This document shows, piece by piece, positions 15,017 through 44,903 of a stretch of DNA of 64,000 nt. A program made the position numbers and the translations under genes. The DNA is taken from positions 372,001 through 436,000 of the forward strand of contig CADCXA010000053.1 of assembly GCA_902806565.1 (NCBI GenBank), given 5' to 3'. Positions within the stretch are counted from its first letter, which is position 1. The number at the start of each line of letters is the position of its first letter. The DNA is from Hypoxylon rubiginosum. Lineage: Eukaryota; Ascomycota; Sordariomycetes; Xylariales; Hypoxylaceae. Under the pieces are notes generated by a model. It did not search any database, was not told the DNA's origin, and saw only the letters and a list, made by a program, of their open reading frames with translations.

Positions 15017-15019
15017 TGA
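15017..15019 (+). other. In-frame TGA stop in the hydrolase domain
   Basis: The frame upstream (from 14809) and downstream (through 15071) is identical, and homologous domains are remembered to read DARILTYGYD here. The sequence reads GAC GCA TGA ATC CTT ACG, so one C-to-T change of CGA explains it. No intron signals surround it. Confidence 0.8.
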
Positions 15020-16219: not shown

Positions 16220-16224
16220 GACGC
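16220..16224. repeat. Target-site duplication, left copy (GACGC)
   Basis: GACGC ends the uninterrupted NLR frame (codon GAC followed by GC) and recurs at 44899-44903, where the NLR frame resumes as GAC GCC CTG GAC GAA TGC. Only five bases match: the next base differs (G left, C right). Deleting the element and one copy gives an intact Walker B reading FIDALDEC. Confidence 0.85.
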
Positions 16225-16410
16225 GACCGTTGGCGGTTTATAAAAAACCGCCAAAGTGATAAAAGTGCCAAGTCCGCCAAATCCGCCAAACCTGCCAAAC
16301 CTGCAAAATGAGTTAAAACTATAATATATATAACTCCCATATTATATAAATACATTAGGTTCTTAATAAATTAATATACTTTATTAATTTAAATTATAAA
16401 AAATATATAA
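16225..16410 (+). repeat. Left terminal inverted repeat of the element
   Basis: About 186 bp that match the reverse complement of 44713-44898. The outer 22 bp is poorly matched but of equal length in both arms. From ACCGCCAAAGTGA inward about 11 differences occur in about 164 positions, and all but one are C/T or G/A transitions. The outer part holds four 9-bp units at 16273-16308 (TCCGCCAAA, TCCGCCAAA, CCTGCCAAA, CCTGCAAAA), plausible binding sites for the mobility protein. The inner part (from about 16310) is already A/T-rich. Confidence 0.85.
16230..16254. repeat. Perfect hairpin at the left tip of the element
   Basis: TTGGCGGTTT, then a five-base spacer (ATAAA), then AAACCGCCAA: ten-base arms, perfectly complementary. 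The right tip lacks this hairpin. Instead it has a ten-base palindrome GTAAATTTAC at 44882-44891. Confidence 0.85.
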
Positions 16411-16493
16411 ATTAATAATAATATATAAAATATAATAAAAAAATTAAAATAAAAATTATTAATTATAATAATAATTTAATTATAATATATTTT

Positions 16494-16757
16494 TAATTTA
16501 ATAATAACTTAGTAATAATTTATTAATAATTAAATAATAACTTAATAATAATTAAATAATAATTTAATAATAACTAAATAATAACTTAATAATAATTTAA
16601 TAATTATTTAATAATAATTTAATAATAATTTAATAATAATTTAATAATAATTTAATAATAATTTAATAATAATTTAATAATAACTTAATAATAATTTAAT
16701 AATAATTTAATAATAGTTTAATAATATTTTAACTATAACTTAATAATAATTAAATAA
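16494..16757. repeat. Left subterminal array of an 11-bp A/T unit (TTTAATAATAA)
   Basis: TTT triplets recur every 11 bases through 16610-16700 (consensus TTTAATAATAA, variants ending AAC or AAT); flanking units are less regular. It lies just inside the left TIR. The same unit, in the same orientation on the plus strand, forms the array near the right TIR. Confidence 0.8.
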
Positions 16758-19700
16758 TTATTATATTATAAAAAAAGTAAATAAATATATATTTTTTTAA
16801 TATTAATTAATATATTTATAAATTATATATTAAATTTTTTTTATTTTATAAATTATTATTATAATTTTAACAATTAATTAAAACCTTAATTATATTATAC
16901 TTTTTAATTTTATTTTTTATTATTTTATTTTATTATTTTTTATTTAATTATAATATAATTAATATTAAAAATTTATATAAAATAAATTTTATTTAATAAT
17001 ATTAATTATTAAACTTTTTATTTAATTTTAATAAAAATCTTTTAATTTTATAAAAAATCTTTTATTTATATATATAAATATAATTAACGTAAAATTAAAT
17101 ATAATAAAAAAAAAAATAAAAAACTTAAAAAATATAACTTAAAATATAGTTTTATATATAATTAAATACTTAAAATTAACTTTAAAAAAAAAAATAAAAC
17201 TATAAAATATTTATATATTAAAAATGTAACTAAATAATTTTCAGTTAAATATAATTATAAAAATTTATTACTTATTATTAAAATTTTTATAAAATTAATT
17301 AATTTATAATTTCTTTTTATTTATAAAAAAAACTTATAAAAAAATATAATAATTTTAATTTAAAATAACACATTAAAAATATTATAAATAGTTATATATA
17401 AGTTATAAAATAAATATAATTTATATTTATAAATAGTTATTAAAATTTATTATTTAATTTTTAGCTTTTATTAATTTATAAAAAAAACTTATAAAAAAAC
17501 TTAGTTATTTTAAAATTAAAATATAAAAGCCACGGTTTTATATATTAGTTTATATATATTTAATATTTAATTATTTAATTAATTTATAATTATTTAACCT
17601 TTAAATATCTTTTTATATAAATAAATTAAATTAAATAAGCTTTTTTATATTAAGTTTTTATTATTATAACCTTAAAAAAAATTATTTAAATAAAAACAAA
17701 TACTTTTTATAACTATTAAAATTATAAAAAAAAAAATATAATTAAGAAAAACTAAATATTAAATAATTACTTATAATTATTATAATTTATAATTATATAA
17801 TTTTAAAATATATATTTTAATAAAAATAAATAATAAATGTTAATTTATATATATAACTATAAAATAATATATTTATATTTATATATATATATATAAAAAA
17901 AAACTACTTTTATTTTTTATTTTTATATATTTTTATTTTTATTTTTTTTTCTTTTTCTTTTTTTAATTATTATATTTTTTTATTTTTCTTTTTATTTATT
18001 TTTTTTTTATCTTTTATTATCTACCTACTTTATTTTTTTTTAAATCTTTTTTTTTTCTTACTTTTATTATAATTTAATTAAATATATTTATTATAAAATA
18101 TCTTACTTATTATATAAATAAACCTTTTAAAAATTTTAAGGTTTTAAATAATATATATTAAAACTAAAAATTTTTTTTTTTTTATTATAAATATTATTAT
18201 ATATATAATTAATATAATAATATACTTTTTTTTTAGTAACTTATTTTATAAAATAAAAATATACCTTTATATTATAATTTCTTTTTAAATAAATTTAATA
18301 AAATCTACTAATTATATTAATAAATAAAATCTATTAAAAACTTTAAAATATTTAATCCTTAAAAAAATATATATTATTTTTATTACTAAACTAAAAATAA
18401 TAATAATAAAAAGAACTTAATTAAATATTAAAAAACTAAGTTAAAACGCTTGTTAAATTTTTTTAAAATAATAAAAATACTATTTTATAAAAAAGTATTA
18501 ATATTATATTAAAAGTTATTAAATTAAATAATTTAATACTTTTAATTTATTTATTAAAACTTAAATTAAAACTTAAATAATAATACTTAATATATATTAT
18601 TTAATATAAATAATCATTTTATTTAATTATAATTTTAATTAATATTAAATGTTATTAACTTATAATAAATAACATATATTATTTTAAAAATCTTTTTAAA
18701 AGATCTTTTAATTTTTTTCTTATTAAAACCAACCTTATTTTAACTATTTTATTTATTAAAAACACATTTTTTTTAAAAAAAAACTAAACCTTTTTTTTAA
18801 TATAAAATTTAAATAAATTATAAAAACTTACCTTTTTTTAGTAAAAATTATTTCTGTAATTAATATTATTTTTTGAAACTTACGATTTAATAAATTTAAT
18901 TTTAATATTTATTAATTATAATTTAATAACTAGTAAACTTAAATTTATATTATTTTTTTTATTTACTTACATTTTATAAAAAAAAATTTTTTTTAAAACT
19001 AAAAACTATTATTAATTTAATTAAAAACTTTAAAACGTTTAGCTTAATATTAGATTTTATATAAATTTTAACTTTTTTACTAATAATATAAACTAAGGTA
19101 AAATAAAAGTAAAATAAAAAATAAAATAAAAATAAAATAAAAAATAAAATAAAAAATATTTATATTTTATTTTTATATCTTAGTTTAATTATAATTAATT
19201 ATTTCTTATAAAATCAAAAAAAAAAATACTAATAATATTTTTTTAATATTTATTTAAATATATATTTATATAATTAATTATAATATACCTTTTTTTTTTA
19301 ATTAACTTTTTATTTTATTTATTTCTTTTATAATAAAATATATTATTATAATATATTTTAAAAATATTAATTAAAAAAATATAAATTATATTTCTTTTTA
19401 TTTATTAAACTTTTTTATTTTTTATTTAATCTTTTTATTTATTATTTTATTTCTAAAAAATTTTATATATCTTTTTTAATTTTAATTATTTTTTTTATAA
19501 TTAATTAATATATATTATTATATTTTAATATTTATATAAGCCTTATTAAAATTTATTATTAGTTAAAACTAACCTTTTATTATTATATATTATTTATTTT
19601 TATAATAATCTTATTAAATAAATATACGTAACTTTATTAAAACTTATATAAAATATAAAAAAATTTATAAATAATCTAAAATAATTCTTAATTCTTATAT

Positions 19701-22700
19701 AAATAAATTTAATTATATATATTAATTATATTATTTTTTAAAACGCCACTAGCTTTTAAAAACAAATTAATTTAAATATATTTTATTAATTTAAATATAT
19801 TTAAAAATTTAAAACCAATATAAATAAAAAACCTAATTAATAGTTATTAAAATTTAATAATTTTTTTTAATTATTTTTAACTTTAAATTAATAACCTTTA
19901 TATTTTTTTTATAAAATATAACTAAATTTTATTAAACATTATAAAATTTAATTATATAATAATAAATTATTATAAATTAATATCTATAATATTAATACTA
20001 TAAATAAGTAATATAACTTTTATAATATATTTTATTAATTTAATAACACTTTTTGCTAATAATTTAACTTATTTTTATATTTTAAAAAAAAAAAACTTAT
20101 TTTATATTTAATTATTAATATTTAAAATAATAATAAATATTTAATTTATAATAATTTCTAACCTTTTTAACTTTTTTTTAAAAAAAATAACAATAAGTTT
20201 TTATTTTATTATAAGTTTAATATCTTTATTAAATATTAATAGTAAAATATTATAAATTAATATTAATATAAAAATAACTATAAACATGTTATTTATTTTT
20301 AATTATTTTATAATAGTTATTATAAAAGTTAAATACCATTATTTAAATTTAAATTCTTATTATATATTTAATTAATAAAAATATCTTTTTTTATTATTAT
20401 TATAATAATAATTAACATATATATTATTTAAATATTAAAATAAAATAACATAATATTAAAATATATTATTTTTTATTTAACATTAAATATAACTTTATTT
20501 TAAAAATAAAACATTACTATATATTTATATATAAACAGTTAAAAATAATCAAAATTTTAATTAACTTAAAAAACCTTTTTTAATTTATTTTTATAATTAA
20601 TAATTAACGTTATATTTAGTTTAATTTCTTTAAAGTAATAACCTTAACTTATATATTATATATTTAAAATAATAATTTATTTTAAAGAAATTTATTAAAT
20701 TATTAATAAAATTTATATATTAAAATATAAAACTTTAAATATATTTTTATTTATTATTATTTAAATAATAATAATATTAATTTCTATATTTTTAATTTTA
20801 ATTAAAACTTATTATATAAACTTGTTTAATTTTATATTATTTATTAATAAAAACTAATTATTATATTTATTAACATATAAAATATATTAAAATAAATAAA
20901 ATAAAGTTAAAAAATAATTTATTTATATTTAATTTAAAATTATAAAAAGATTTTAATTAAGTTTAAAAAAGTTAAAATAAGTTATATTAAATACTGGTTA
21001 ACTATATAAATTAAAGTTAATATATTTATTATTATTATTATTATTAATTTTATTTTTATTTATTAGTTTTTATAGTTATTTTTTTAATTTAATAATAGTA
21101 ATTATTATAATAAGAATTTAATAAATAGATTATATTTATAATAAAAAGCTAAAGAAAATAAAACTAAAAAAGTTTTTAAAAACTAAAAAACTTATTAAAA
21201 CTAAAAGATTTTTTTTAAAATTTAAAAAAAGTGAAAAGCTTTTTAATATTATATAGGAAAAGTTAATAAATTTAAATTAATTAAAAATTAATATTGGTTA
21301 AGTTATATATTAATACCGTTTAAAAAGAAAAAAAAAAAAACATTTAAATATTATATAAAATTAAATATATATTATACTTAAAAAATTATAAAATGTAAAA
21401 AAGTTAAGGAAAAAATGTAAGTAAATTTAAAAAAACTATATAATTTTTAAAAATAAATATAAACGTACTTTTAACACTTTTTACTATTTATAAGAAACAT
21501 TAAAAATACGCTTATATTTTTTAGTAAAAAATTACCGTAATATAATTTAAAAATAATATTTAATAAATTATTTAATTTTTATTTAATATTATAAATATTA
21601 AAACCACTTATATAAGTATTTTACACTTTTACTAGATATTAATTTTTGGTAAATATTATATTTATTATAACTTTAATTTCGGAATTATTTTTAGTTTATA
21701 ATATTAAGGCCTTTTTTTTTTTTATAATAAATTTATTTTATATTTTATATAAGTTTTTACTAAACTTTTATTTTAAAAAATTTATATAGTTAGTAAATAT
21801 TATTAATATTAAAATTACTAGATTAAAGTTTAATTAATTTAATTTTATTATAAAACTAATAATTAATATTAAATATTTTAGTTATTTTAAATATATAAAA
21901 CCATTTTTATTTTTCCTTGTTTTAAATTATAATAATATTAACTATAATTTTATAATATATATTTATTATATTATAATTAAAAATATTTAGTTTTATAATA
22001 ATATATTTAATAAAAATATTTTATATTTTTTATATTTTAAAAACCTTTAAAATATTAATTTTATTTTAATTATTATATTATTAATAACTAGTAATACTAT
22101 TATTTAAAAAACTTGTTATTTTTATATTCTTAATTATATAAGTTTATTTTTATACTTATTTTATATTTCCAGGTTTTAATTATAATAAATTTAAAGTTAT
22201 ATATTATAATATTTTTTTTTAACAACTAGTAATTTCCTTATATTTTTAATACTTTTTTATTATATCTTATTATACCTTTAAATAATATTTTTATTAACCC
22301 TTTTAATATATTAATAAAAACCATTTTAACACTTTTTTTTTTTACCGCTTAATAAACTGTTATTATATTTATATTTATTTTTTTATTAACTAATTTAACT
22401 AATTATATAACTGTTATTAACCGTAATAAAACCTACTAGGTTATATAATATAATATAAGAATAAAAATAATATATTTAATATTAAAAAAAACTAAGTTAT
22501 AGTTTAATATTAATTATATAAAATAATATATAAAAATATTAAATAATAATAAACTTATTAATAACTTAAATAATATATTTCTTTTTTATAATAATATTTA
22601 TTATATACTTAATTATAAAAAACTTATTATTATTCTAAAAAAACTAAATAATTAATATATTTTTATTTTTAAAATTATTAAGTTAAATGTAAAATATTTA

Positions 22701-23829
22701 TATAATATATATATAATATATTATAATTATATTTACTAGGATTTTTTAGGCGTTAAAATTAAGTTTTTTTTTAACCGTTTTATATAAAATATTTTTTATT
22801 TAAAACCCATATATATTATTTTTATATTATATTTTTATTATTTAATATAAGTTTATAATAATAATAAAAACATATATAAAATTTAAAATAAACTTATATT
22901 AAAGTTTAAAAAAAGCTATAATTAATCTATAAATAAAAATAATAAGTATATATATAATTTAAATTTAACTAATAATAATAACTATTTTATTTAAAATAAT
23001 AAAACATTGGTATTTAATAAGTTTAAGTTTAAGTTTAATAATTATTAAGAATATTTATATAGTTTAAATATTTATAAAAAACATTTTTTTAACTTAGAAA
23101 ATAATAAAAATTATAAAAAATATAAACAGATTTAAAAGTATAATAATAAGTTTAATAATATTAATATTAAAATGGATATAAATTTTAATATTACTTATTT
23201 TATATTTAATAATGTTATAAATAAATTTTAAAAACTAGGTAAAAATGTTACTCTTTTTAACTATAATACTTTAAAGGAAAAAAATATATAAAAAAAAATA
23301 TATTCTTAAGGTTTTATTTTAATAAATTAAACTTAAAAAAATAAATTATATATATAACCTTTTATAAAATTTAAATCCATTAGTTAAAATATTATATATT
23401 AAATATAACTAAATAAATAATTATTATATTAAAAAAGTTTTAAAATAATATATAATTAATATAAATATATATATAAAATTACTTTTATATTAATTAATAT
23501 AACTAATAAATATAATAGATATAATAATTAATAACTTTTAATTAATCGCCGCTTATAATAACTACGATATTTATTATTATAAGGAAAAAAAACTATTAAT
23601 AAATAAACTAATAATAATAAAAACTATATAAATTTATATAAAAATTAAAATAAGTTAATATAACTTTTAATATAAATAAGCTTTTAATAAATATATAAAT
23701 AAATTAATTTATTATATTAATATTTAATTTATTTATATAAAAAGTATTTACTTAAACTAAAAGTAAATATATTTATATTTTTAGTTTAATATTTAATTAT
23801 TTACTATTTATTAAATAATATAAATAAGT

Positions 23830-24010
23830 TATATTTTTTTTTTTAAACTTTTTAATAATAATTATTAAGTTTTTATTTAATTATTATTATTAAATTATTA
23901 TTAATTTATTTTTTAACCCTTATTTAATTATTATTAATTTAGTTTTTATATTTTTAATAACCTTATTATTTTTATTAATTATTAAGTTATTTTTAAAATT
24001 ATTATTATTA
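23830..24010. repeat. Internal A/T array related to the 11-bp unit, opposite orientation
   Basis: Runs of TTATTATTAA and AATTATTATT at 23865-23935 and further related sequence to about 24010 are the reverse complement of the subterminal TTTAATAATAA unit. Shorter plus-orientation clusters occur at about 24825-24885 and 25600-25660, and another reversed one at about 25995-26050. Confidence 0.55.
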
Positions 24011-27000
24011 TTTTTAATAATATTAACCCTGGCTTTATTATTTTTAACTTTAGTTTTAATTTCTAATAAAAATAATAAGTTTATAAAATAGTAATTATTA
24101 TTATTTTTAAGTTTATTGTTATTTATTATAATATTTAATTATTAAAAAGTTATTAATTAGTTATTTAATTAAATAATAATTATATTAAACTTATTTTAAC
24201 CATTTATTAATATATAATTAATATTATTTATTAAATATAATTTAACAATAAAATTTATTAATATTACTAGCATTTAAAAATATAAAGAATTATTAGATTT
24301 AAACTTTTTTAATTTAATAAGGTTAATATTATAATTAATTTTAACCAAGTTATTATTTAATATTAGTTAAAAACTAATAATATAATTATTATAATTAATT
24401 TTATTTAAATTATTATTTAACGCTAGTTAAATTTACATTTAAGGTGTTAATATTTAATTAAGCGTTAAAACTATTTTATTTTTATTACTTTTTTTCTTTT
24501 TCTTAATTTTTATTTTTTTAAATATTTTAATATAATATAATAACCGTTGTTTTTTAACTATTTAAATAACAAGCTTATTACTTTTTAAATATTCAAATAA
24601 AGTATTATTTATTTTAAATATATAAAACTTACTTAATAATAAAAAATCTTTTTTTATTATATTATAAAAACTTTATTTATATATTTAATTTATTAGTTAG
24701 TTAATATAAAATTAAAAATATAAATATTTTTATATTTTAATTTTAAATTAGTTTATAATTAAGTTTATTATAATAACTTTAAATTTTTATAAACTATAAC
24801 TAATTAATATTAATAAGTTAAACTAAATAATAATTAAATAATAATTAAATAATAATTTAATAATAGTTTAATAATAACTTATTTAAATTTATAATAAAAT
24901 TACACGTTACACCAGTTTTTTATAAAAATAAATTTATATAAAATACTATATTATTTAATTAATATTTATTTTATTAATATTTAAAAAATATTTTACAAGT
25001 TTTTAATAATAGATTCTTTAATTAATATAAAAAAAACTAACAATAAATTAATTATATTTATTAATTATTATTTAACCTTAATTAAATTATTATTTAACTA
25101 TAATTTATATATTTATTTTAACGTAAAAATCGTATTAATATTTTTAAAATTATAACTATTAATTAAAATCTTTTATATAATTATTAATATATTTATATTT
25201 CCTTTAATTTTAAAAATAATACCATATATAATATTAAATCTAAGTATAATTTTAATTATATATTTTATAATCTATTAGTTTTTAAATATTAATTAAACTT
25301 TAATTTAACTTATATATTATTATTATATTAAAAAACTAAAACTTAATTATTAGAAAATATTATAACGGTTAATATATTATTTACTATTAGGTTATTATAA
25401 TACTTACTAATATTTTAACCTATAAATATATTTAAAAGTTTATAACTTTTTTTAATATATTTTTTTTATTTTAAAAAACTAATTAAATATTACTAATTAA
25501 TAATAAAATTAATATTAATTAATTTATAGGAATTTAACTAATAAAATTTTTATTTAAAATAAATTTTATTTTTATTAACTATAATTAAAAAATAACTAAA
25601 CCAACGTTAAATAATAACTTAATAACAGTTATATAATAACTTAATAATAATTTAAAAAATTTTAAATATTATAAAAATATTTATAGTTAAAATAAAAGTT
25701 TTAAATAATTAAAATACCTTTTATATTTATTAATTTTATTAATATTTAATTTTTAAATATATAAAAATTAATATATATATTGAAAAAAAATACTATGTTA
25801 TTTTTATTATTACTAGTTTTAATAAATGGTTTAAACGTTACTATTTTAATATGTTAAAAATATTTATAATATATTTTTAAAATTATAAATTAAATATTAA
25901 TATATTAAGCTTTTATTAAATAAAAAAATATATTAAAAGTAAAAAATAATTTATATTAAAATATAATAGATTTATAACTATTTTTAAGCCATATTTAAAT
26001 TATTAATAAGCTATTATTAAACTATTATTTAGTTATTATTAAGTTATTTTTATTAAATATTATTATAAATAATAATTTTATTTTTTACGTTATTTATTTA
26101 TATTATATTACATATTTATTATTATATATATTTATTAATTATAAATATTAATTTTAAATACTACTATTTTATTTATTTTAAAACCATTTATTGTTTTTAA
26201 ATATTATTTTTTTTTTATTATTAAATTAATAATTTTACTTTTAATTTTCACATTATTATATAATATTATTATTTATATATAACTAAAAAATAATCCGCTT
26301 ATTTAGTTAAAATTATTATTTAATAATAACTAACCCCACTTATTTTAATTAATTAAATAATTATAAATTTATAATAAAAATATATATAAAATTAATTTAT
26401 TAAATTTTTTAAATATTATAAACCTTATTTAAATTTTTATATTTATTTAACTTATTATATATATATATTACTTTTAAATCTTAAATTTATCTTTTATATA
26501 TTTACTTAATAATTATATTAATAATTTATTATTATATTATTATATTACTTTTTTTAATAAATTTATATTAATGTTTATAACTATATATTAATATTATTTT
26601 AACTATTTTAATTTAAAATTAATACTAAATTTTAATACTTTTAATAATAATAATATTTATTATATTATAATATATTATATTATATATATAATAACTAAAA
26701 ATATCTAAGTTTTTAACGAAGAAAAAATATAAATAAACTTTAATAAAATACCTTTTTTTTTAAAACTATAACGCTAGTTTTTATAAATATATCTAGGAAT
26801 AATATTTTATTTATAAGTTATTATTATTTTTATATTTTAAACTATAAATAAAAAAACTATATATATTAATATTATAACTTTATATAAATAATATCTTTTA
26901 ATTATTATTTATAGTTTTATTAATTAATTTAAAAATATAAGATATTAATATTAAAAAATCAATTAATTAATAATAATATAATAATATAAAATAATAAATT

Positions 27001-30000
27001 AATATAAATTTACTTAAAATCTAAAAATATAATATTTAATTTAATATAATAATAATTACTTATAAATTATTATTATTTATAAAAAAGCTTTTAATAATAT
27101 TTAAACTTTGTTACTTTTATATATTAATTAATATTATATTTATTAAAAATAAAAATTATCCTTAGATTTTTTTAAAAATAATAATAACTATTATTATTAT
27201 TATTTAACGTTTTTAAACTTTATTAATAAATTTAACTAATAATAAACTAACTTTTTATTTATAAATATATATATTATATACTAATAATTAATTAATTATA
27301 ATAATTTTATTAGATTTTAAAATGGTTTTTAAAATATTAATAATATTAATTTTATTTAATTTTAACTTTATTTTAAAATTAAAGTTTATTTTTATTATTA
27401 ATATATTATTATTTTTTATAATAAAATACTTTTAAACTTAAAAAATAAGTTTATTTATTTAATAACTAATAAATATTTTTTAAATTAAAAGTAAATTAAA
27501 ATTATTATTATTAACTAGTTTAAAAATTCCTTTTTACACTAGCTTTTTTAACAAAATATATATTATATTAAAATAACTATAACTTTTATTAATATAATTA
27601 ACGGTTTTATTTAAATTAAATAAAACTTTTTAATAAATATTAATAAAAATATATATATTAAATTATTATATAATATATTATTTTACTTTTAAACTTAAAA
27701 ATTAATAATTAAAATTAATTTAATATAAATGGTTAATTTAATAAAAATAATTAACTTAAAAATAATTAACTTAATAATAATTAACTTAAAAATAATTAAC
27801 TTAAAAAAGTTAACGTTTTTAATATAAATATAATAAAAAATAAAAAATAATAAACTTTTTATAACTTATAGATACGTAATATAAATATTATAATATAAAT
27901 TTTATACGTGTTATTAATTAAAAAACTTTTAACTTTTAATTAAAATATATAAAAACTAATTAATATATTTTATATTTTTATAAAATTATTTAATAGTTAA
28001 AACTAAATAAAAACTTTTTTTTTCTTTTTAAAATATTTTATAAATATTATAATTTAATTATTATTAATTATTTATTATTTATTATTATATAATTTAATAA
28101 TAACATGTTTTTAAAAAAAATAATCTAAATATATATAATATTTATTTAATTTAATATTTATATAACTTATTTTTAATTATATTAAATAATTCTTTTAATA
28201 AATAATAAATAAATTTATATTACTTAAACATTTAAATAAATATTTTTTTATTTTTATTAATATAATATTAAATAATAAATATATAGATTTTAAATTAAAA
28301 TAAAAATAATAATAAGTTTTATAATATTTATTATATTTTTATTTTTTTTTTATAATTATTATTAACATTTTAATAAAAACATTTATTATAAATAAAATAT
28401 CTCGCTTTATTACTAAGGTTATTATATTAATAAATTCATTTATAATTTATACTTTATATTTTATTATAAAATCTAGTTTATATATAATTAACTATAATTA
28501 AAATACTAAATTTATTATTATTAAACCTATTATTAAAACTTATATTAAAAGAAAAAAAAAAAGGTAAAAAAATATAAAAAAGATATAAAATAATATTAAA
28601 ATATAAAAATAATAGATTATAATTAAGCGATTATAATAATAAAAAATTAAATAAACTAGTTAAATATTAAAATACCTTAAAAGTTAAATATTTAAACTAA
28701 TATTATTATATATATAATTATTAACTTATATGTTTTTATACGCCTTTAATAATTTAATTAAATAAAACTATTTATTTTTATATAAACTTTATTAATATAT
28801 AGCTTTTTTTTAAACTAAGATTTATATTTAAAATTAAATTATTAACGTTACTAAATAAATTAAACATTTTTATATTTAAATTAAAATATATATATTTTAT
28901 TTATATAAATAAACTAAATATATATATTTATTTTATATAATAAATTTAAATAAAATAAAAGAACTATTTAATTTAAATTAAAAATCTATTTATAAGTAAA
29001 TAAATATATTAATTAGTTTTTTTTTATTATTTTTATAGTTTTTTTTTTTTATTTAATAAAAATAACTAAAAAATATTATATATTTAAAAATAAAATAAGT
29101 ATATAATTTTTTAAATTAATATAAAAATTAGTTTAATATTAAAATAATATACTAGTAATATATATAATAAATTTATTTACACGTTAAATAATTATTTATA
29201 TTTTATTTTTATTACTATAAGTATTTCTTTTTTTATTAATTAAAACTAATAAAACTTAATAAAACATTAAAATAAATATTATTTTTATTTTAATTATAAT
29301 TATTAAATTTTTATTATATATTGTTTTTATTTTATTTATAAATTTTATATTAATTATAAATAATAAAGCTTTAATATTTATCACTTTTAATTTATTTATA
29401 AACTTTATGTTAATTGTAGATAAAAATAATATTTTTATTAATCTAATTAATATTTTTATTATAAATTTAAGTTTAATATTTTTATTAAGTTATTAAAGTT
29501 TTAAAAAACTAAATAACTTAATAATTTAAATAAAAACCAGCTAGATATTATAACTATTAAAATTATAAAAAATAGATATTTAAAATATATATTTAATTTT
29601 TTTCTTTTTTATTTTAAAAAAAATAATAGTTATTATTTTTTTTTTTTAATTTTAAAGAAATTATTTTTTATTATATAATATTAAGTAGTAAAAATATTTT
29701 ATAGCTTGTTTTTTAAAATTAAACATGTTATTAAAAACGTTATATATATTAAATAGAAAATTATAAGTAAATAAATATTAAAAGATTACTTTTATTTTAA
29801 ATTTTTAAAACTTAAAAAGTAAATAAATCTAGTTAAAACTTTTAAATATCTTTAATTATAAATTAAAAAAAACTAATAATATATATAACAACTATATAAT
29901 AATAAATATTATTATAATAAAATATTTTATATTAATTAAAATATAATATATTTATTTTATATAATTACTAATAAAATTAATTTTACACTTTTTAAAAAAT

Positions 30001-33039: not shown

Positions 33040-33160
33040 GGAGAGTTTTTTATTAAACTTTAAATTAAACACGTTATATTTAAATAAAATAAAAAATCTT
33101 TTATTAAACTTTAAATTAAACATATTATATTTAAATAAAATAAATAACTTTTTTTTAAAT
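33040..33160. repeat. Two copies of an approximately 51-bp unit
   Basis: TTTTATTAAACTTTAAATTAAAC followed by a TTATATTTAAATAAAATAAA segment occurs at about 33048 and again at about 33100. The 51-bp spacing equals 17 codons. Related A/T repeats extend to about 32945 on the left. Confidence 0.6.
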
Positions 33161-33589
33161 AACAATAAAATAATAGTTAATTCCTAGTTTAATTTAAGTA
33201 ATAATAATAAAAATAACACTATTAAAAAAAAACTTATTAATATAAAACTAATTTTAAAAAAAATATTATCTTTAGATTATATATTAAATATTTCTATATT
33301 TAAAAAAAAAACAAAATTAAACCAACGTTTTAAAATAATGTTAAATAACATAATATAAGTATTTTAAATATTTAAAACATTATAAACTTGGAAAAATAAA
33401 ATACACGATCTAGTTAAATAAATTAAAATAAAATATTATAATATACTTTATATATATTAATATATATTAATATAATAATATTTAATTTTTAGTTTATATA
33501 TTAAGTTATTTATATTTTATAAAGTTTTTTTAATCTTTAAAATTAAAATTCTACTACTAATTTAATTAATTAAAATTTTTTTATAAAAT

Positions 33590-33810
33590 ATAAGTTAATT
33601 TTATTTAAATTATATAATTTTTTATTAAAAAATAAACTAATCTTTTTTAATTTTTTTATAATAAATAAATTAACTTTATTTAAACTATATAATCTTTTAA
33701 TAAAAAATAAGTTAAGTTTTTTTAATATATTATATAATTTTTTTAAAGGAAACGGATTGCTTTTATTTTTTAAACTATATAATTTTTTAAACAGTAAATT
33801 CTTTTTTTAT
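33590..33810. repeat. Degenerate repeats containing TTTAAACTATATAATTTTTTA
   Basis: The motif TTTAAA(C/T)TATATAATTTTTT occurs near 33603, 33679 and 33768, with a weaker copy near 33725. Spacing is uneven (about 75-90 bp). Confidence 0.45.
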
Positions 33811-35384
33811 TACAAAAAAATTATAATTTAAAAAAACTTTATAATTAGTAAAAAAAGGTATTTTTATAAATATAATTAAAGTAAAATATATATTTATAAT
33901 CTTTTATATATTAAAGTTATAAAATGCCAGGAAACATATAGATTCTTATATTTTAAACTAAAAATATAATTTTTAAAAATAAAAATTAAATATTTTTATA
34001 ATAGTAAAAAATATAATAAAAAATCTAAAAAACTAGACTAATTAATAAAATAAACGTAATAATTTATTTTATACTAGTAATATAAAATAAGATAAAAAAA
34101 ACAATGGTTAGTTAAAATATTATTAATATTAAAAAACTAAAAAAATATTTAAAAAAATCTTATAAAGGTTAAAAAAGGCTAATAAATATAATAAAATTTA
34201 GTAAAAATAAAATTATATAATAAACTAATAATATAGTTAAATAATAAAGCTTAAATATAAAATATTTAACAATTATATAATATTTTTTATTAATATAATT
34301 ATAAAAAAAAAAAAGGAATATTTTAAAGTTAAAAATAAAAGTAATTAATATTTATTAAAATTATAACTTTATTAAAAATAAAAACTAAATAATTAAACTT
34401 TTATTAATATATTTATTTTTCTTATTATAATATTAATTAATTAAGGATATTTATATTATTTTCTATATTAAAACTAAAAAAAATAAAATTAATTAATTTA
34501 AAAATATATAAAACTATAAATATATTAATATATTTATTTTTTTTATAAACCTTTTTAATAATATTATATATTAATAAAAACTTTATTTAAAAATAATAGT
34601 TTTATTTTAAATATATATTTTTATATTATAATAATATACTTATAATTACTAGATATTTTTTAGATTTTTCACTTTTTATATAATTATAAAATAATTAATT
34701 AACTTTTTTTTTTTTTTTAAAAATGATTTATTTTATAATAATACTTAATATATTATATTATATATATAAAATTTTACATATAATAACGTTTTTTAAATTA
34801 TATTTATATAATTAATTAAGTTTTAAATGTTAATATATATCTTAGAAAAGAAATAAATTTATAAATTATAAAATTTTAATAATAAAAAACAAATGATTTT
34901 TATATTTTTTAAGTTATAAAAAAATATTTATTATATTTCTAATAATAAAAGTAACTAATTAAATTAAAATAAATATATAAAAAAATATAACCTTATTAAA
35001 TTATATTTATATATTTATATTAAGTTAAATTACTAGATAAATATATAAAATATAATAAAAACTTCTTTTTTTTTTAACTAATATTATAAATTTTTTTTTT
35101 AAACATTTTATTTTAAATTAAACTTATATTTTTTTTATTTTATTTTTATAATAAATATTAACAACTAATTAAACTTTATTATTATAATAAATAATTACTA
35201 AGTTTTATTATAAAAATTTATAAAATATATTAATTTACCTACTATATAATAAAATAATAAAATTTTAAATATATTTTATATTATAAATAACTAAATATAA
35301 ATTTTAAATATATAAATATAAAATATAAACATATATAATATTTATTTAAAATTATAATTAACTAATTAATAAACTTAAAACTAT

Positions 35385-35525
35385 AAATTATTATATAATA
35401 AACAGGTTTTAAACTTTAAATAATTATATTAAAATTATAAACACTTATATTAAAATTATAAATATTTATATTAAAATTATAAACCATTATATAATAAACA
35501 AGTTTTAAGTTTTAAATAATTATAT
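35385..35525. repeat. Nested short repeats (21-bp triplicate within a larger duplicate)
   Basis: A segment TTATATAATAAACAGGTTTTAA...TTTAAATAATTATATT is present twice (about 35390 and 35485). Between them TTATATTAAAATTATAAA is tandemly repeated three times at about 21-bp spacing. Confidence 0.6.
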
Positions 35526-37299
35526 TATAAATAAAATCGTAACATTAAATAAATAAATAAATACACGTTTTAAAAAATTAAAAATATAATTAGTAATATT
35601 ATAAATAAAATAATATCTTTTATTAATAATAACCAGGTTTTAATATATAATATAAATAAAAATACAAATAATATAACACGTTTAATAAATAATAAAATAA
35701 ATATATTTATTATTAATTTATAATTTTTTTAAACATTAAAAATTAATATTTTAATTAAAAATTTTCTGTAAATAATATTAATAATTAATAATTTAATTAA
35801 TAAATATATATATATATATTATATTTATTAATATTAAAAGTATTTATTATAAAAATAAAACTTAATTATTTTTTTAAATTATTAAGCTTAGATTTTTATA
35901 ACATATTTTCTATTAAACGTAAAAAACTTATTTAAATATATAAAATGATTATTTTAAGTTTAAAATATATAACTTAATTTATAAAAAAAAAAAAAAAATA
36001 TTTTTAAAAATATTTAAAAGTTATAAAAACTATAAAAAGGTAATTTAAAACTTTATATCCTTTATAAACATCTATAAATAATAAATAAAAAATTTAAATA
36101 AATTAAAAAACATTTATTTTATAGTTACTATAAATAGTTTTATTTTAATATCACTTATATTATTTATTATATTATTTTATATAGTTTTATATATTATTTT
36201 TTATATTATTTTTTATATATTTATATATAATTTTTAACATGGTTTTTTAATTACTTTTACCATTTTAATATTAAGTAAATTATATTTTAAATACTTAAAT
36301 AAATTAAATAAACCTATATTTTTTTAATAAAAAACATAGCAAAAAAAGTCTAAAAAATAAAATAAAATAAAAATAAAATTATAATACCTTAAATAACTAA
36401 CTATATAACCTATCCATATAAATATAAATTAAAAATTAATTCTTAATAAGTTTTTATTAACAATTTTATAACTAAGCTTTAACTTTAATTAATTATTTAT
36501 TTTTAGTTTTTTTATATTTAGTTTTTTTATTTTTAATTATTTTATTTTTAACTTTATTATTTTTATTATATTTATTACCACTATTTTTATTACCGTTATT
36601 TTTATTACCACTTTTATTATATTTAATTTAAATAAATATTATATAAACTAATTTAAACTTTTAATTTTTAAAATTAATTAATACTTATTAATATAATTAT
36701 TTATTTTTATTTTAAATTAAGAAATTATATAATAATTTACCGTTATAATATAAATTTTATATAAATAAAACTAATAACTTTATAAAACTAATATATTTTA
36801 TATTATTATATAATAAATAAAATAATTTATTAAACTAAAAAAAAAGTATATTTTAATTATTAATATTTAAAAGTTTAATAAATATATATAAATATAAATT
36901 AATAATTTTTTTTTATATTGCGTTTTTATATATAAATAAAATAATTATATTAAAAAAAAACCTAACGTTTAATATTATTAAATATTATATTTATAATTTA
37001 AATTAAGTTATATTATAAATTATTATTAGTTTAATTAATTAATATAAAAAAGCTTTTATATTAAATCCGGTTTTTTAATATAATAAAAACCTTACGTTTA
37101 ACTATAAAATAATTATTTATAATTAAATTAACAAGTTTAATAAATAATTAAACGGTTTTATATTTTTAAGTAAATTTTTTATAAAACTATAAACAATTAA
37201 TTAATATAAGTGTTTTAAAAAAAGATTTTTTAATAAATAAATTTTTAATAAAAATACTTAATCTTATATTTTATTCTTTTATTAACTATAAATAAATAA

Positions 37300-37465
37300 A
37301 TGTTTTTTTTTTTTTTATTTTTTTTTTTATTTTTTTCTTTGCCTTTTTTTTTACTTTCTTCTTTATTTTTTTTTTTATTTTCTTTTTTACTTTTTTCTTT
37401 ACTTTTTTTTTTACCTTTTTTTTTACCTCCTTTTTTACCTTTTTTTTTACCTTTTTTACTCGCTT
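37300..37465. repeat. Polypyrimidine array built on a 12-bp ACCTTTTTTTTT unit
   Basis: The plus strand is almost pure T with C and few A. ACCTTTTTTTTT-like units recur at 12-bp spacing near the right end. Read on the minus strand the array is an open tetrapeptide pattern with Gly, Ser or Asn followed by Lys-Lys-Lys and occasional Glu. That would suit a former Lys-rich coding repeat, but a noncoding microsatellite is equally possible. Confidence 0.6.
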
Positions 37466-40399
37466 ATAAGTTTATTAATAACGTAAAATTAATAATAAAA
37501 TAGGTTTTTTTTTTTAACAGGAAAATAATATAAGTGGTAATTTTAATATAAAAAACCTTTAATATTTTTACTTGTTTTAAAAAGCTTACTTTATTTTTAA
37601 TAAGGATAAGTTTAAAACTAATAATTATATAATAATTTATTTTAAAGTTTCTTATTTTTTTTTATATATTATTATATAAATTTTAAAAATTTTTTTTTTA
37701 TATTTACTATTTTAAATTAAAATATTATATTTTTATTATAAAAATCATTAAATATTATTAATTTATAATTAAAAAATTCCATTATATAAAAACGTTTTTT
37801 AGTTTAAATTTAAAAATGTTAAATAAATTAAAAATATTTAATTTTTTAAAAATAAAAAAATAATTTAAAATTAAATTTATAATAAATATTATTATAAAAC
37901 TAATAATATATAAATTAATTATTATTTTTAAAAAAAACTTAAACTTAATATTTCATTAAAATTTATATATTAATTAAATAAAAAATTATATAAATCGTAT
38001 AAATTTATTATTAACTATTTTATAAATTAATATATATAATATTTTCTTATTAGTTTTTATAATAAAAAAAATATAAAAAATAATTTTTACTTATAAAATT
38101 ATTTAACTTTAAAATTAATTATATATTAAACGTTTTATTTTTTTATATATAATTATTCTTTTTTTTAAAACGTTAAATATATATATAATATTTTTATTAA
38201 TAATATTAAAATTTTTAAAATGGTTATATTATAATATATTTTCATTTAATATATTTTTAATTAATATATTTTTAATTAATATATTTTAAATTATTTTACC
38301 TTTTTATAAGTTAATAAAAAACTATATAAATATATTTAAACTTATTATATAAATTATATTATTTATATTATTTATAATATAAAAAATAATAAATATATTA
38401 AACTAAATATTAAATATAATATATTATTTATATTTTTTTTTTATTAATTAATAACTATAATATAAAATTATAAATAATAATATAAATATATTAAATAAAA
38501 ACTTTTATTAAAAAATTCGTAAATATTTTTATAAAAATAATTTAATTAACGTTTATATTTATTAAATATTACTTATTAATTATCTTTTAAATAATAATCT
38601 TAATGTAAAAATATTATAAAAAGTAAAAATATTAAAATTATTATAAATAAAAATATAATATAAAAAAATTAATAACTATATAATTAAAAAAGTTTAATAA
38701 AAACAATAATTATTTTTTTTTATTTTTTTTTATATTTTTTTATAAATAGTTTTTTATTATAATTAAAAAATAACTAAATTATTTATATTATATAATAACT
38801 TATTAAGTTATATATTTTTATTTATAAAACTATTATATTAAAAATAAGAAATTATATATATTTAAAATTAAAAAAATAAAATTAAAAAGCCGGCGATTAA
38901 TAGCTTCATTTATTTTAATTAATTATATTTTATTAATTATTTAAGTAAAAATATTTTTTTTAAATATAAAATTATTATATAATATTTTACTTTTTTAATA
39001 AACTAATAATAATATATATAATGTATTAATATTTAAATAACTTTTAAAATAAATTAAATATAAATTAAAAAATATATAAAAAATTAATATATAAAAACTA
39101 ATATATATAATTATAATTAACTAAAAATATATAACTTAATTAAGTAAATTTAAAAATAACATTAAAAAATTTACAGGAAAGGTTTTTTATTATTAAAAAA
39201 AAGTAGCGACTTAATTTAAATTATTAATAAAAATTCCGCTTTTATTATAATAAAAAATATATCTTTATTTTAAACCGTTAAAAAGAATTTTATTTACATT
39301 ATAATAAAAAATAAATTTTTAATTTATAACTTTTTAAATAAAAAGTTTTTAACGGTTTATATTAAAATAAACTATTTATTATAATTAAAAATATAAATAA
39401 ACGTTTTAATATTAAATATATATTAAAAATACCTTTTTTAATATAATTAAAAACAGTTTATTATATTAATTTATTAAAACTTAAAAAATTCCTTTTTACT
39501 ATATAATAATAATTAATAAAAATATTTAACGTATTATTTTTTAAACTTTAAAATTTTATTAAAAACTTTAAATATAATTTTTAAAAGTTATAAAATAATA
39601 AAGCGGTAATAAAAGTTTATTATTTTAATTTCTTAAAAAACTAATAGTAAATAAATTTATTTAAGTTAATAAAAAAATTTAAACCAGTTTATAATAATAT
39701 TAAAAAACTATTTTATATATTTAATTATAAAGTTAATATTAATAAAAAACTTATTAATATAAAATAAAAACTTATTTATACTTTTTAATTAATCTTTTAA
39801 GTTAATTAAATCCGTAAATTTAATATATATTAAAAATATTTTTATTTTACTTTATAAATATTAAAACTAATTATTTAAAAACATTAACTTATTAATTAAA
39901 TTTAATAAATCGCCGAGAAAATTTCTTATAATTAATTTTACATATTTAATTATCCACTCCTTTAAATTATTTAATAAAATATATTTTATTATATTATTAA
40001 TATTAATATAAAGGTTTTTTAGCATTAAAAACCTTATTAAAAAAACATTTTATAAATATTACATATTATTTAAAATCTAGGATAAAATCTAATAATTACT
40101 ACTTATATAATTATTTATTATATTTATTATAATAATTTAATTAATATAAAGAAAAAAAATAAGGCTAATTAAAACTTAAAACCCTTTTAAAATTTTATAT
40201 TTATAAAAAATAAAAAATAGCTTATAAAAAAAAATAAATAATAATATATAATATATAAAATAAATTAAAATAAATAAGGTTTTTTAATAAAATAATTAAT
40301 AAATTAACTTATATATAATTTAATATTATTAATATATAATTAATATTTTATATTTAAAATACTTAAGGTTTAAATGTTAATATATTACTTTTTATTACT

Positions 40400-41400
40400 T
40401 TTTAATTATATAAAAACTAAATCGTTTAATAATATTAATAAAACCATTTATTTTAAGATAAAATCTATTAAAAATTTCAGTAAAAATATAATATTTATAT
40501 TAATATATAAACCTTTTAATAATATTTATTTAAATGTAATTATAATTTTAACGAACTTAAAAAAATTATTATTTAATAATATTACTAGGATCGGTTAATT
40601 AAAGTTTAAATTTTTTAAAAGTTTTAATAAAAATATAATATTTATATGATTTTATAAACTTTTAAATTATATTTAAATAAAAGTAACTTGAATAAATACA
40701 AGGAAATTCTCGTTTAATAATATTAAAAAAAAAAAGCTACTTAAACTTAGTATTATTTAAAAATTTAAAAAAATATAATATTTATATTAACTTATAAACT
40801 TTTAATTAACATTTAAATAAATATAATTTTATTAAATTCCAATTTATTTTTATTTAATAATACCAGAAAAATTAATTATTTAAAAATATAATTCTTTAAA
40901 AATTATAATAAAAATATAATATTTTTATTAATTAAAAAATCTTAAAATAATATTTAATTAAATATAATTTAAATTAAATTAAAAATATTTTTATTTAATA
41001 ATACCAAAAAAATTAATTTCTTAAAAATATAATTTTTTAAAAATTATAATAAAATTATAACATTTATATTAATTAAAAAATTTTAAAGTGATATTTAATT
41101 AAATATAATCTTAGTTAATAAAAAAAGATTTTTATTTATTAATATAAAAAAAACTAATTATTTAAAATTATAATTCTTTAAAAACTTTATAAAAATTATT
41201 ATATTTATATTACTTTATAAATTTTTTATTAATATTTAATTTAATATAATTTTATTAAGTTTAAAAAAATTATTATTTAATAATATTAAAAAAATTAATT
41301 ATCCTGTTAAAAAATTATTAAAGAATTTTAATAAAAGTATAATATTTATATAAATATATAAATTTTTTAATGGTATTTAAATTAATAAAAGCTTAATAAA
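40400..41400. repeat. Tandem array, about seven copies of an approximately 141-bp unit
   Basis: The anchor TAAAAATATAATATTTATAT (with variants) is found at about 40481, 40628, 40768, 40909, 41050, 41190 and 41332: spacings of 147, 140, 141, 141, 140 and 142. A second anchor, TTTAATAATA(T/C)(T/C)A followed by AAAAAATTAATTATTT, lies at a constant offset in each unit. The unit is close to 47 codons, so a decayed protein-repeat region is possible, but no residue pattern can be recovered. Confidence 0.8.
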
Positions 41401-44400
41401 AACGAAATTAATATTAATAATATTTAAATAAATATATTTATATTTTTTAAAATAAAGTTACCTTATTTTAAAATTATTAATTACTTAATATAAAAATATT
41501 TTAATATTAATTTAACGTTATATTTTTTTTAATATAAATTAATATAATAAGGTGCGGTATAATATAATTTAATAAAATATAAAAAAAAAATAAAAAAATA
41601 AATATAAAATTATTTTTTTTATATAAATTTTTATAATAAAATTATTTTTAATTATTTATAGCTTATTAAAAAAGTTAATATAAATTATGCTTTTTTTATT
41701 AAAATTTATCTAAAAAATAATATAAAATAAAAAGTTATTAATTTAACTAAATATAAGTAATATAAAAATAATATAATTAAGTTTTATTATAATTATAAGT
41801 TTAAATTAAATATATTAATAAATATAAAGAAAAATCTAATATATAAATTAATGTATATAATTATAAAATAACTTATTCTTAAAAATATAATCTGGTTTAA
41901 ATATATTTAAATATACCTGGAAATTATAAATTATTAATATAATTAAAAAAAAGTTCGTTATAATAAAAAACGAAGATTTCTTTTAATTTTAAAATTAAAT
42001 TAATTATAAAATATAAATAAATATTAAAAATTTCGTTTTACTAAATTTAAAATTTATATAAATATTAATATTTATTTTTATAAAATTATATAATATAATA
42101 TTAATAAATTTAATAATTTACTTATAAATATAACCGATTAATATCTTAAAATAATTATTATATTAAGATTTTAACTTTAAATAACTTATATAAATTATAA
42201 AATTAAAACTTCTTTTATAACTTAAATATAATATTAATTAATTATATAAATTAAGCCTTAAATAATTATATAATTTATAAATAAAATAAAAGTAAAATAC
42301 TTATAAAATATATATATTTTAAAGTTATATAAGTTTTATATAAGTTAATATAATATAAAAATTAAATAATAATAGTTTTTTTTTTAAATTAATATAATTA
42401 ATTATTAAATTATAAATAAATTAATATCTATATTATTAAATATTAATATTAATATTATATTATTAATAATATTTTAAAAGTTTATATAATTTAAATTTAT
42501 TTAAAAAATATTAACTTTATATTTAAATTATAATATATATTATTTTTAAAAACTTATTATAATAAAAAGTAATTTAATATATTTATTTATAAAATATTTA
42601 TATTATTAAATAATAGGAAAATAAGGTTACTAACTATGTTAATAAATTTTAAATAAATTTAAATAATATAAAAATAAAAAATTATATTATAAATTTAACT
42701 TTTAATTTTTTATTATTAAAATTAACATATTAATTAAAAAAGTTAATATATAAATATAACCTTAATAATTTCCTAGCCTTAAAAATATAACGGATTTATA
42801 ATAAGTAACTAGTGTAATATTTATTAAAACTTATTAAAGATAAAAATTATTTATATTTTAATAAATATATTAGTTTAAAAAATTATTTAAAATAATATAA
42901 AAAGAATAAAAAAAAACCGGTATTAATATTTAATAAGTTTTTATATAATAAAATAATATAATATATAGCTTAATTAAACGAAATAAAAGAATAAATAAAA
43001 ATGAAATAAATATAATTATATAGTTATTTATTAAATATTTTAAAAATAAAAAAATAAATTTAAAAAATATTAAAAATTTATATATTATTTTTTATAATAA
43101 TTATAAATTACTTATCTTTTAAATATATACTTATAATATAAAACCGCTAAAGTGGTAAAAACAGTTATTTTAATTATTAACTATTTTTTATTTAAATAAA
43201 TATTTATTTAACTTACTAGATATTATTTTATTATTTAAAGTACTGGTATTTAAATATATATTTAAATAAATAAATATTAAATAAATAAATATTAAATAAT
43301 AAAAATTATTATTTTTATTTATTAAAAGTTTTAATTTTATTAGTTTTTTAAAACTTATATAATTTCTTTTAATTTATTATAATAAAAGTTTTTTTTTATA
43401 TTATATTTAATATTATAATAAATAAAAATAATTTAATTTTTATAAACCTTTTTAAAAATATATTATATATAAAACTATAATTAGATTATTTATTTTAAAT
43501 TATAAAAAAAAAATCTTATTTTAAATATATTTTAAATATCTTATAAATTAAACTATAAAAATATATATAATAATAATTTAATTATTTTTATAAGCTTTTT
43601 TTAGTAAGTTTATATTTAGTGTATAAAATTTAAAATATTATTTAAGTTATTATTAGTTTATTTTTTATAATAATGTATATTAATTTTTTTAAAATTAAGG
43701 TTTTTTAAATATTAATTACTATAATATTAATATATAAATTTAAAGGTTTTTTATATTTATTAAAATTAAAATCTTATTATAAAAATCTAACTTTTATTAT
43801 TTAAAAAATTATAGCTTTTAAAATAATAATATTAAATATTTATACCACTAAAAATATTAAAAATAAATATAATAAGTTTTTTTACTTAACAAGCTTTTTT
43901 ATTTATTATTTTTATATATATAAAAATGTTTATAATTATTAAGTTTATCGCTTTTTATATAATAATATCTTAGTTTTTTTTATTATTTAAATAATTTTAT
44001 AATAATATTATTATCTTATAATATTAATATTTTTATTAATAAAATACCTTATAATAATATTTTATATAACATTTAATATTTTTTTTTATTTAACACTTAT
44101 TTAAATAAAAGATAAATTAAATATAAATAATATTTATTTATAATAATTATTTTATTTATATTTATAAATTTATATTTTAAAATCCTAAGTTTTTATAATT
44201 AATTATTTTTAAATAAATCTTTAAAACTATAATAAAAACTTTAACTTATTTTAATTAATAAACTATATAAATTATAAAAAAAAACTAATTAACTTTTTAA
44301 TATATAGTTTTTAAATTTAATTATATATATATATAAAACTTATTATTTAAATAATAAAACTATAAATTAAAAAACTATTATATTATTTTAATATTAAAAT

Positions 44401-44504
44401 TTTATATATAAATAAACCTAGCTTATATTTTTTTTAATACTAATAAATTAAACCTTTTATTTAAATTATAAAAATTATATATTTTTTATTTAAACTTTAA
44501 ATAT

Positions 44505-44645
44505 AATTTAATAATAATTTAATTATAACTTAATAATAACTTAATTATAACTTAATAATAATTTAATTATAACTTAATAATAATTTAATTATAATTTAAT
44601 AATAATTTAATAATAATTTAATAATAATTTTATAATAATTTAAAT
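44505..44645. repeat. Right subterminal array of the 11-bp A/T unit
   Basis: TTTAATAATAA units alternate with TTTAATTATAA/CTTAATAATAA variants, giving an apparent 22-bp higher-order period. The orientation on the plus strand is the same as in the left array, so the pair is not part of the TIR symmetry. Confidence 0.75.
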
Positions 44646-44712
44646 ATTATTATAAATATTTTATAAATATAATAAACTTAATTTTAAATTTAAATATAAC
44701 TATAATTAGCTG

Positions 44713-44898
44713 TTATATATTTTTTATAATTTAAATTAAGAAAGTATATTAATTTATTAAAAACCTAATGTATTTATATAGTATAGGAATTATATATATT
44801 ATGGTTTTAGCTTATTTTGCAGGTTTGGCAGGTTTGGCGGATTTGGCGAACTTGGCACTTTTGTCACTTTGGCGGTTTAGCGTAAATTTACAGCGGAG
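44713..44898 (-). repeat. Right terminal inverted repeat of the element
   Basis: Its reverse complement matches 16225-16410. The GC-containing outer part (44815-44880) carries GCAGGTTTGGCAGGTTTGG-type units, the complement of the left 9-bp CCGCCAAA repeats. The last 22 bp before the GACGC copy is only partly similar to the left tip (CCG, TG and TTTA match in register). Confidence 0.85.
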
Positions 44899-44903
44899 GA
44901 CGC
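44899..44903. repeat. Target-site duplication, right copy (GACGC)
   Basis: GACGC precedes CCTGGACGAATGC. It is the first sequence that fits the NLR frame after the element and equals 16220-16224. Confidence 0.85.

What the first reader, a model, noticed from the sequence alone, without database searches (positions are those of the whole stretch)
16220..44903. A 28.7-kb element with 186-bp TIRs is inserted precisely in an NLR gene
Seen: inverted ends match over about 186 bp, GACGC flanks both, and the NLR frame is continuous across the junction once the element and one GACGC are removed. Known: class II elements make such duplications, and fungal giant elements (Starships, Mavericks/Polintons, KDZ-type) reach this size. 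The five-base duplication, long TIRs and CCGCCAAA-repeat ends match none of these that I can name with confidence. Inference: a giant DNA transposon or virus-like integrated element of undetermined kind, now mutated beyond reading.
Basis: partly seen in the sequence, partly recalled or inferred. Interest (0 to 1): 0.92.

Follow-up and report, generated by a model that had tools for sequence, protein, structure and literature searches.

The report
Burst of giant RIP-mutated fungal transposons
A 28.7-kb mobile DNA element jumped into an immune-type gene of a fungus and has more than two dozen sister insertions in the same genome; the copies read in full were almost identical when they landed and were then shredded one by one by the fungus's own genome defence, and the element's kind is still unknown.

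Summary
Window 16225-44898 (28,674 bp, 7.5% G+C) lies between GACGC repeats inside an NLR gene; joined flanks give one 975-aa frame, and a public protein 99% identical over 695 aa crosses the junction uninterrupted. The ends recur: 27 left and 26 right termini in the genome, the window's included, 17 pairs; 13 of 17 have exact and 3 of 17 one-mismatch 5-bp duplications without target consensus. Seven whole copies differ pairwise by 2,229-2,939 transitions but 6-81 transversions; 89 of 92 clean purine/pyrimidine differences are private to one copy: one burst of near-identical copies, each then mutated separately by RIP. Codon phase survives in purine/pyrimidine code, so the element carried genes. 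Starship captains, Restless-type hAT and the host's MULEs were not detected by a test whose controls work; 54 Pfam read-through pieces gave no hit. Best reading: a giant inverted-repeat DNA transposon moved by an enzyme making 5-bp staggered cuts, superfamily unnamed. An integrase-type (Ginger2/Tdd, Polinton-like) element is not excluded.

The parts
16225..44898 (.). the element, 28,674 bp, 7.5% G+C, RIP-saturated inside
16220..16224 (.). left target-site duplication GACGC
44899..44903 (.). right target-site duplication GACGC
16225..16410 (+). left terminal region: 20 bp left-specific, then 166 bp of inverted repeat; outer 75 bp keep 45-50% G+C (mean of 7 copies)
44713..44898 (-). right terminal region: 166 bp of inverted repeat and 20 bp right-specific end (44879-44898)
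16230..16254 (+). left-end palindrome, 10-bp arms around 5 bp (TTGGCGGTTT / AAACCGCCAA)
   Evidence: read; same in the 17 left ends read, up to single transitions
16248..16308 (+). cluster of short repeats of the type CCGCCAAA / CCTGCCAAA, mirrored at the right end (about 44818-44876)
   Evidence: read; role as recombinase binding sites is inference
22225..24625 (.). stretch with surviving codon phase in purine/pyrimidine code (former coding sequence, inferred)
29125..30025 (.). stretch with surviving codon phase
31825..33325 (.). stretch with surviving codon phase
37525..38425 (.). stretch with surviving codon phase
15071..16224 (+). 5' part of the interrupted NLR gene (NPHP3_N NTPase domain, PF24883)
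44904..46677 (+). 3' part of the interrupted NLR gene (rest of the NTPase, ankyrin repeats)

Best explanation
A family of giant (28.7-kb), formerly gene-bearing DNA transposons with asymmetric ~186-bp inverted ends. Shown: integration leaves a 5-bp duplication at targets without consensus; the copies read in full descend from one nearly invariant source; each was afterwards mutated independently by RIP (C to T, mainly before A and T), while the outermost ~75-100 bp stayed largely intact; one copy cut an NLR gene in two. Inferred: an element-encoded DDE-type transposase or integrase binds the CCGCCAAA-type repeats in the ends, joins the element to a target cut with a 5-bp stagger, and repair makes the duplication. 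The superfamily of that enzyme is not identified.
For: Duplications: 13 of 17 exact, 3 of 17 with one mismatch, no target consensus. Ends in 27 + 26 places, 17 pairs. Uninterrupted allele or close homologue P0001. Transitions to transversions from about 28:1 to 490:1 over 21 copy pairs; G/C positions shared at 30-48% only. Loss fraction among sites where at least one copy keeps C/G: 0.81 before A, 0.68 before T, 0.24 before G, 0.13 before C. 89 of 92 clean purine/pyrimidine differences are singletons. Codon-phase signal 19.5 against 11.1 +/- 0.85 in 100 shuffles and 22.2 in host DNA.
Against: No transposase or other protein family was recognised: 0 Pfam hits in 54 read-through pieces of one copy. 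The size is far above ordinary cut-and-paste transposons. C67_61k, 1 of 17, has no duplication. DDE-type integration is inferred from the duplication alone.
Confidence: 0.75

Rival explanations
1. An integrase-based element: a Polinton/Maverick-like or other virus-like integrated element, or a giant relative of Ginger2/Tdd, joined to the genome by a Gypsy-type (rve) integrase.
For: [quoted passage not shown] size and long TIRs resemble Polintons; codon-phase signal over much of the length.
Against: No PF03175 polymerase match in the genome (the control rang only in E. coli, below the cut-off); the only rve matches are 3 places elsewhere, two in long open frames that I read as Gypsy-like; two ORFs with a polymerase-like motif gave noise, but Pfam did not confirm them as polymerases. 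The ends are GACCG...CGGAG, not TG...CA (rule for such integrases recalled). The tests have little power here: a RIP-simulated Gypsy piece is missed by Pfam and 28%-identical Gypsy frames give only 103 against 83.
Confidence: 0.2
2. A Starship (tyrosine-recombinase giant element).
For: Giant size and Pezizomycotina-like host; a captain-type gene (DUF3435) exists elsewhere in this genome.
Against: Profile of 86 captains: best 85 in the element against 88-122 for 15 column shuffles, while 5 of 5 held-out captains of the same family score 736-1398; a RIP-simulated captain is still found by Pfam at 9e-7 but none in 54 read-through pieces; long inverted repeats and 5-bp duplications without consensus. 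The profile covers one captain family only.
Confidence: 0.03
3. The element was natively extremely AT-rich and moved in that state.
For: The seven whole copies have 3-13% G+C in every inner kilobase, and the outer ends keep a GC-rich sequence.
Against: Copies share only 30-48% of their remaining G/C positions and differ almost only by transitions; 22.8% of gap-free columns have G/C in at least one of 7 copies and Chao2 gives 30%. A 49-bp solo right end on C25 is unmutated.
Confidence: 0.02

Closest known systems
Ginger2/Tdd DNA transposons (TDD-4, TDD-5)
   Same: 5-bp target duplication in TDD-4/TDD-5 and TIRs of 260-297 bp (PMC2836005, passages)
   Different: 3.8 kb instead of 28.7 kb; a Gypsy-integrase-like transposase, not seen here (test weak)
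Polinton/Maverick
   Same: large element with long TIRs and, by codon phase, much coding sequence
   Different: 15-20 kb with protein-primed PolB as defining gene (PMC4046053, passages); none detected, test of limited power; about 6-bp duplication (recalled) against 5 here
Starships
   Same: giant mobile element in a filamentous ascomycete
   Different: no captain detected with working controls; long inverted ends and 5-bp duplications without consensus
KDZ (Zisupton, Kyakuja)
   Same: DNA transposons found in fungi
   Different: 8-bp (Zisupton) and 7-bp (Kyakuja, no TIRs) duplications (PMC12730594, passages)
hAT5 group of hAT
   Same: 5-bp duplication (PMC12730594, passages)
   Different: Restless-type hAT profile at noise here; ends not CAGGG-like (recalled)
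RIP-made AT-rich blocks, e.g. Trichoderma reesei
   Same: AT-rich blocks predicted to be affected by RIP (PMC5496416, passages)
   Different: here one 28.7-kb unit of known ends, 7.5% G+C, with the outer ~75-100 bp largely spared

Membership tests
[quoted passage not shown]
   16 of 17 copies with 5-bp duplication, at most one mismatch
Class II TIR DNA transposon | encoded DDE transposase | tested here: inconclusive
   0 of 54 read-through pieces with a Pfam hit; the scan misses RIP-simulated MULE and Gypsy pieces
Starship | DUF3435 tyrosine recombinase captain as first gene | tested here: not met
   one captain family as profile
Polinton/Maverick | protein-primed DNA polymerase B | tested here: inconclusive
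   no PF03175 in the genome or in read-through frames; no proper Polinton polymerase was at hand as reference
Polinton/Maverick | rve integrase | tested here: inconclusive
   low power
Ginger2/Tdd | Gypsy-integrase-like transposase | tested here: inconclusive
   only Gypsy-like references at hand
KDZ | 7- or 8-bp duplication | tested here: not met
   5 bp; the KDZ model rang in no genome, not even controls
MULE | MULE transposase | tested here: not met
   profile of 3 own-genome MULEs: 106, just above 82-105 of 6 column shuffles and 95 reversed, but far below the 372 that two MULEs 31% identical give by the same code. 8-9-bp duplication expected (recalled)
hAT | hAT transposase | tested here: not met
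   profile of 100 Restless-type hATs: 86 against 80-112 for 15 column shuffles, control 1038; hAT groups far from Restless are not covered
Transib/RAG (5-bp duplication, recalled) | RAG1-like transposase | tested here: inconclusive
   PF12940: 0 matches in the genome, but the model rang in no control either
RIP target | repeat with C-to-T changes on both strands, mainly CpA | tested here: met
   CpT is hit almost as strongly

The most novel reading that the evidence does not exclude
An undescribed superfamily of giant, gene-bearing inverted-repeat transposons, or a virus-like integrating element, lives in Pezizomycotina beside the Starships and has gone unseen because RIP erases everything but the outer ~75-100 bp of each copy soon after a burst.
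Probability: 0.4. Interest if true: 0.82.

Novelty: new variant of a known kind. Interest (0 to 1): 0.62.

Why it matters
The giant mobile elements best known in filamentous ascomycetes are Starships. A second kind with true inverted repeats and 5-bp duplications would mean that another recombination system moves tens of kilobases in these fungi. The case also shows how RIP can hide such elements: some 0.5 Mb (17 paired copies), perhaps 1 Mb, of recent insertions reads as gene-free AT-rich DNA, but ends, duplications and codon phase in purine/pyrimidine code can still be recovered. The outer 49-70 bp give a search tag with which readable relatives can be sought in other fungi.

Tried and rejected
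Rejected or fruitless: TIR motif in viral contigs (0) and in bacterial genomes (1 hit; the sequence looks like a chance hairpin behind a bacterial gene). PolB-like pattern in viral contigs (11 stretches): 122 ORFs of at least 150 aa from these and from L069 were scored against the element, no credible match; one antisense ORF (L066) reached z about 6 and was dropped as compositional because the long sense ORF of that contig scored 110 over 3,982 aa; this is a judgement. A single hAT (L069) scored 121.6 against 110 as best of 60 unrelated NLR pieces (25 shuffles 97.9 +/- 8.5, highest 119.1), and 76 of 120 hATs had their best place near 37 kb in one frame against 17 of 80 NLRs; the hAT profile did not bear it out (86, shuffled 80-112), so I dropped it, but it is the strongest weak lead. 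Among 14 single references one NLR (P0002) scored 126 against nulls of 99-116; the NLR profile gave 103 against 98 reversed, so I take it as noise. Integrase motif pattern in viral contigs gave one short contig without a clear gene, and a follow-up returned only itself. No structure prediction was run: RIP-mutated sequence would give a meaningless model.

Full report
What was checked. The window is C53:372001-436000 of a 48.27-Mb genome in 70 contigs. GACGC stands at 16220-16224 and 44899-44903. Between them lie 28,674 bp with 7.5% G+C, against about 42-59% per kilobase in the flanks. The ends pair over 166 nt (16245-16410 with 44713-44878) at 94%; the outer 20 bp differ. The left end starts GACCG and has a 25-bp palindrome; the right end, read inward, starts CTCCGCTGTAAATTTACGCTA. 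This difference is the same, up to single transitions, in the 17 copies read at both ends.

The target. The flanks joined without the element give one frame of 975 aa with an NPHP3_N NTPase domain and ankyrin repeats; the junction falls in FIDALDECDD. A search of 5.8 billion proteins with the joined protein found 2,025 at E 0.001, of which 120 were listed. P0001 (785 aa, source lgn, contig 2,657 nt) aligns without a gap over 695 aa including the junction at 99%, and 118 of the 120 listed have an ungapped block over residues 376-395. P0001 is either the empty allele of another isolate or a very close homologue; its DNA was not seen. The NLR halves hold no stop, so the insertion is probably young. 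Of 7 insertion sites read with about 600 bp of flank on each side, 2 lie in frames of more than 200 aa across the junction (the NLR, 398 aa within the piece, and C29_667k, 243 aa); the other 5 have at most 82 aa.

The family. Searches with the outer 70 bp scored 40 of 52 candidates each: 27 are left ends and 26 right ends, counts that include the window's own ends and are lower bounds. 17 pairs form whole elements, so there are at least 27 insertions and at most 36 among these, one of them a 49-bp solo end; some unpaired ends lie near contig edges and may belong together. Seven whole copies were read, 28,544-28,717 bp; three pairs are longer, about 35, 37 and 45 kb by their end coordinates, and their content was not read. 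Duplications: 13 of 17 exact, 3 of 17 with one mismatch, 1 of 17 (C67_61k) none; expected exact by chance 0.017; no consensus in or around the target by eye.

RIP and timing. Over 21 pairs of whole copies there are 2,229-2,939 transitions and 6-81 transversions; remaining G/C positions are shared at 30-48%. In 26,256 columns more than 10 bp from a gap, 92 show a purine/pyrimidine difference, 89 of them in one copy only (55 of these in C11_270k), 3 shared. That is a star: near-identical copies spread in one burst, and each was mutated on its own afterwards. Among sites where at least one copy keeps C/G, the fraction lost is 0.81 before A, 0.68 before T, 0.24 before G and 0.13 before C, the next base being read in the mutated state. 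CpA is the published RIP context (PMC12543289, passages); the strong loss before T goes beyond that. 22.8% of gap-free columns have G/C in at least one copy; Chao2 gives 30% as a lower bound for the element before RIP, which is below the host's G+C but may be an underestimate. Mean G+C is 0.41-0.50 in the outer 75 bp at either end, 0.23-0.27 in the next 25 bp, and 0.00-0.07 from 150 to 400 bp inward, apart from 0.11 in one right-end bin near 125-150 bp, so RIP fades at the edges. A 49-bp solo right end on C25, 49 of 49 bases identical, sits unmutated in host DNA, as expected if short repeats escape RIP (length limit recalled).

What it encoded. RIP changes only C to T and G to A, so purine and pyrimidine positions survive. 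In that two-letter code the codon-phase spread averages 19.5 over 93 windows of the window's copy, against 11.1 (sd 0.85) in 100 dinucleotide-preserving shuffles and 22.2 in host DNA 1-16000; 9 of 93 windows exceed 34.4, the value that 95% of shuffles never reach, and 2 of 93 exceed 47.2, the highest value in any shuffle. Much of the element was therefore coding; genes and strands were not resolved. I then aligned proteins to this code without restoring any base. Controls: an NLR frame hidden in the element scored 386-743 with homologues against at most 135 in other frames (8 of 120 proteins tried); MULEs 31% identical scored 372; held-out captains, back-translated by host codon classes, 736-1398 (5 of 5). 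Element: captain profile 85 (shuffled 88-122), hAT profile 86 (80-112), MULE profile 106 (82-105, reversed 95), NLR profile 103 (reversed 98), two Gypsy-like frames 100 and 101 (nulls 95-116). The MULE and NLR values lie a little above their nulls and far below true relatives. The method does not see Gypsy-type frames at 28% identity (103 against 83).

Pfam was scanned with the six frames of copy C43 read through with X at stops: 54 pieces, no hit at E 0.5; of three pieces of the window's copy, two had no hit and one only four weak hits of E 0.22 or worse. RIP-simulated controls: amino-acid permease 6e-8 (at 13% G+C, milder than the element), ankyrin Ank_2 6e-5 (below its curated cut-off), captain 9e-7 (10% G+C), while MULE and Gypsy pieces were missed. 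So 3 of 5 controls are found; a captain would probably have been seen, a MULE or integrase not. In the genome at large PF03175, PF18758 and PF12940 have no match, the last two without a working control; PF00665 has 3 matches elsewhere.

Mechanism. Shown: 5-bp duplications, fixed asymmetric ends, no target consensus, one burst. Inferred: a DDE-type enzyme recognises the CCGCCAAA-type repeats and joins the ends to a target cut with a 5-bp stagger. Tyrosine recombinases normally need matching sequence at donor and target (recalled), which these duplications do not show. Whether movement was cut-and-paste or replicative is open; the star pattern and copy number only ask that one source sequence dominated. 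The 17 paired copies make about 0.5 Mb; if the unpaired ends also belong to whole copies, up to about 1 Mb.

Comparison. 5-bp duplications are reported for TDD-4/TDD-5 (TIRs 260 and 297 bp, 3.8 kb; PMC2836005, passages) and for hAT5 (PMC12730594, passages); Zisupton makes 8 bp, Kyakuja 7 bp without TIRs (same passages). Polintons are 15-20 kb and defined by their polymerase (PMC4046053, passages). Starships are defined by a captain at the 5' edge (PMC12506042, passages). None fits on all tested points.

Verdict. A real and unusual finding: a giant, young, RIP-obliterated inverted-repeat element family. It is a new variant of the known kind 'giant TIR DNA element'; a new superfamily is possible but unproven because the genes cannot be read without a step that I referred.

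Noticed in passing
G000 contigs C10 and C60 (L048, L049, L052-L054, L069): The open transposase-type frames found in the genome sit mainly on C10 and C60: a DUF3435 frame (C10), three MULE frames without stops over the cut-off (C60, C10, C60) and a hAT frame (C10). These contigs may be a compartment that escapes RIP.
   Followed up: no
L071:94-142 (G000 C25:435293-435341): A solo, unmutated 49-bp right end of the element in host DNA, inside a 313-aa open frame of the 1,301 bp read.
   Followed up: partly
G000 C31:841633-886704, C21:168664-206020, C32:418135-453162: Three copies are about 45, 37 and 35 kb long between their ends, presumably with further insertions inside.
   Followed up: no
G000 C67:61725-90633: Copy with proper ends but no target duplication (TTCTG / GCATT); possible recombination between copies.
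   Followed up: no
window 16225-16320 and 44805-44898: The outer ~75-100 bp of the seven copies read in full largely escape RIP although the inside is saturated; a natural measure of how RIP fades at the edge of homology.
   Followed up: partly
window 7723-7877: 63-bp tandem repeat, 2.5 copies, in host DNA.
   Followed up: no
L045 and L046: Two long open frames with an rve match (1315 and 2302 aa), Gypsy-like by eye, without stops in an otherwise RIP-active genome; possibly domesticated or very recent.
   Followed up: no
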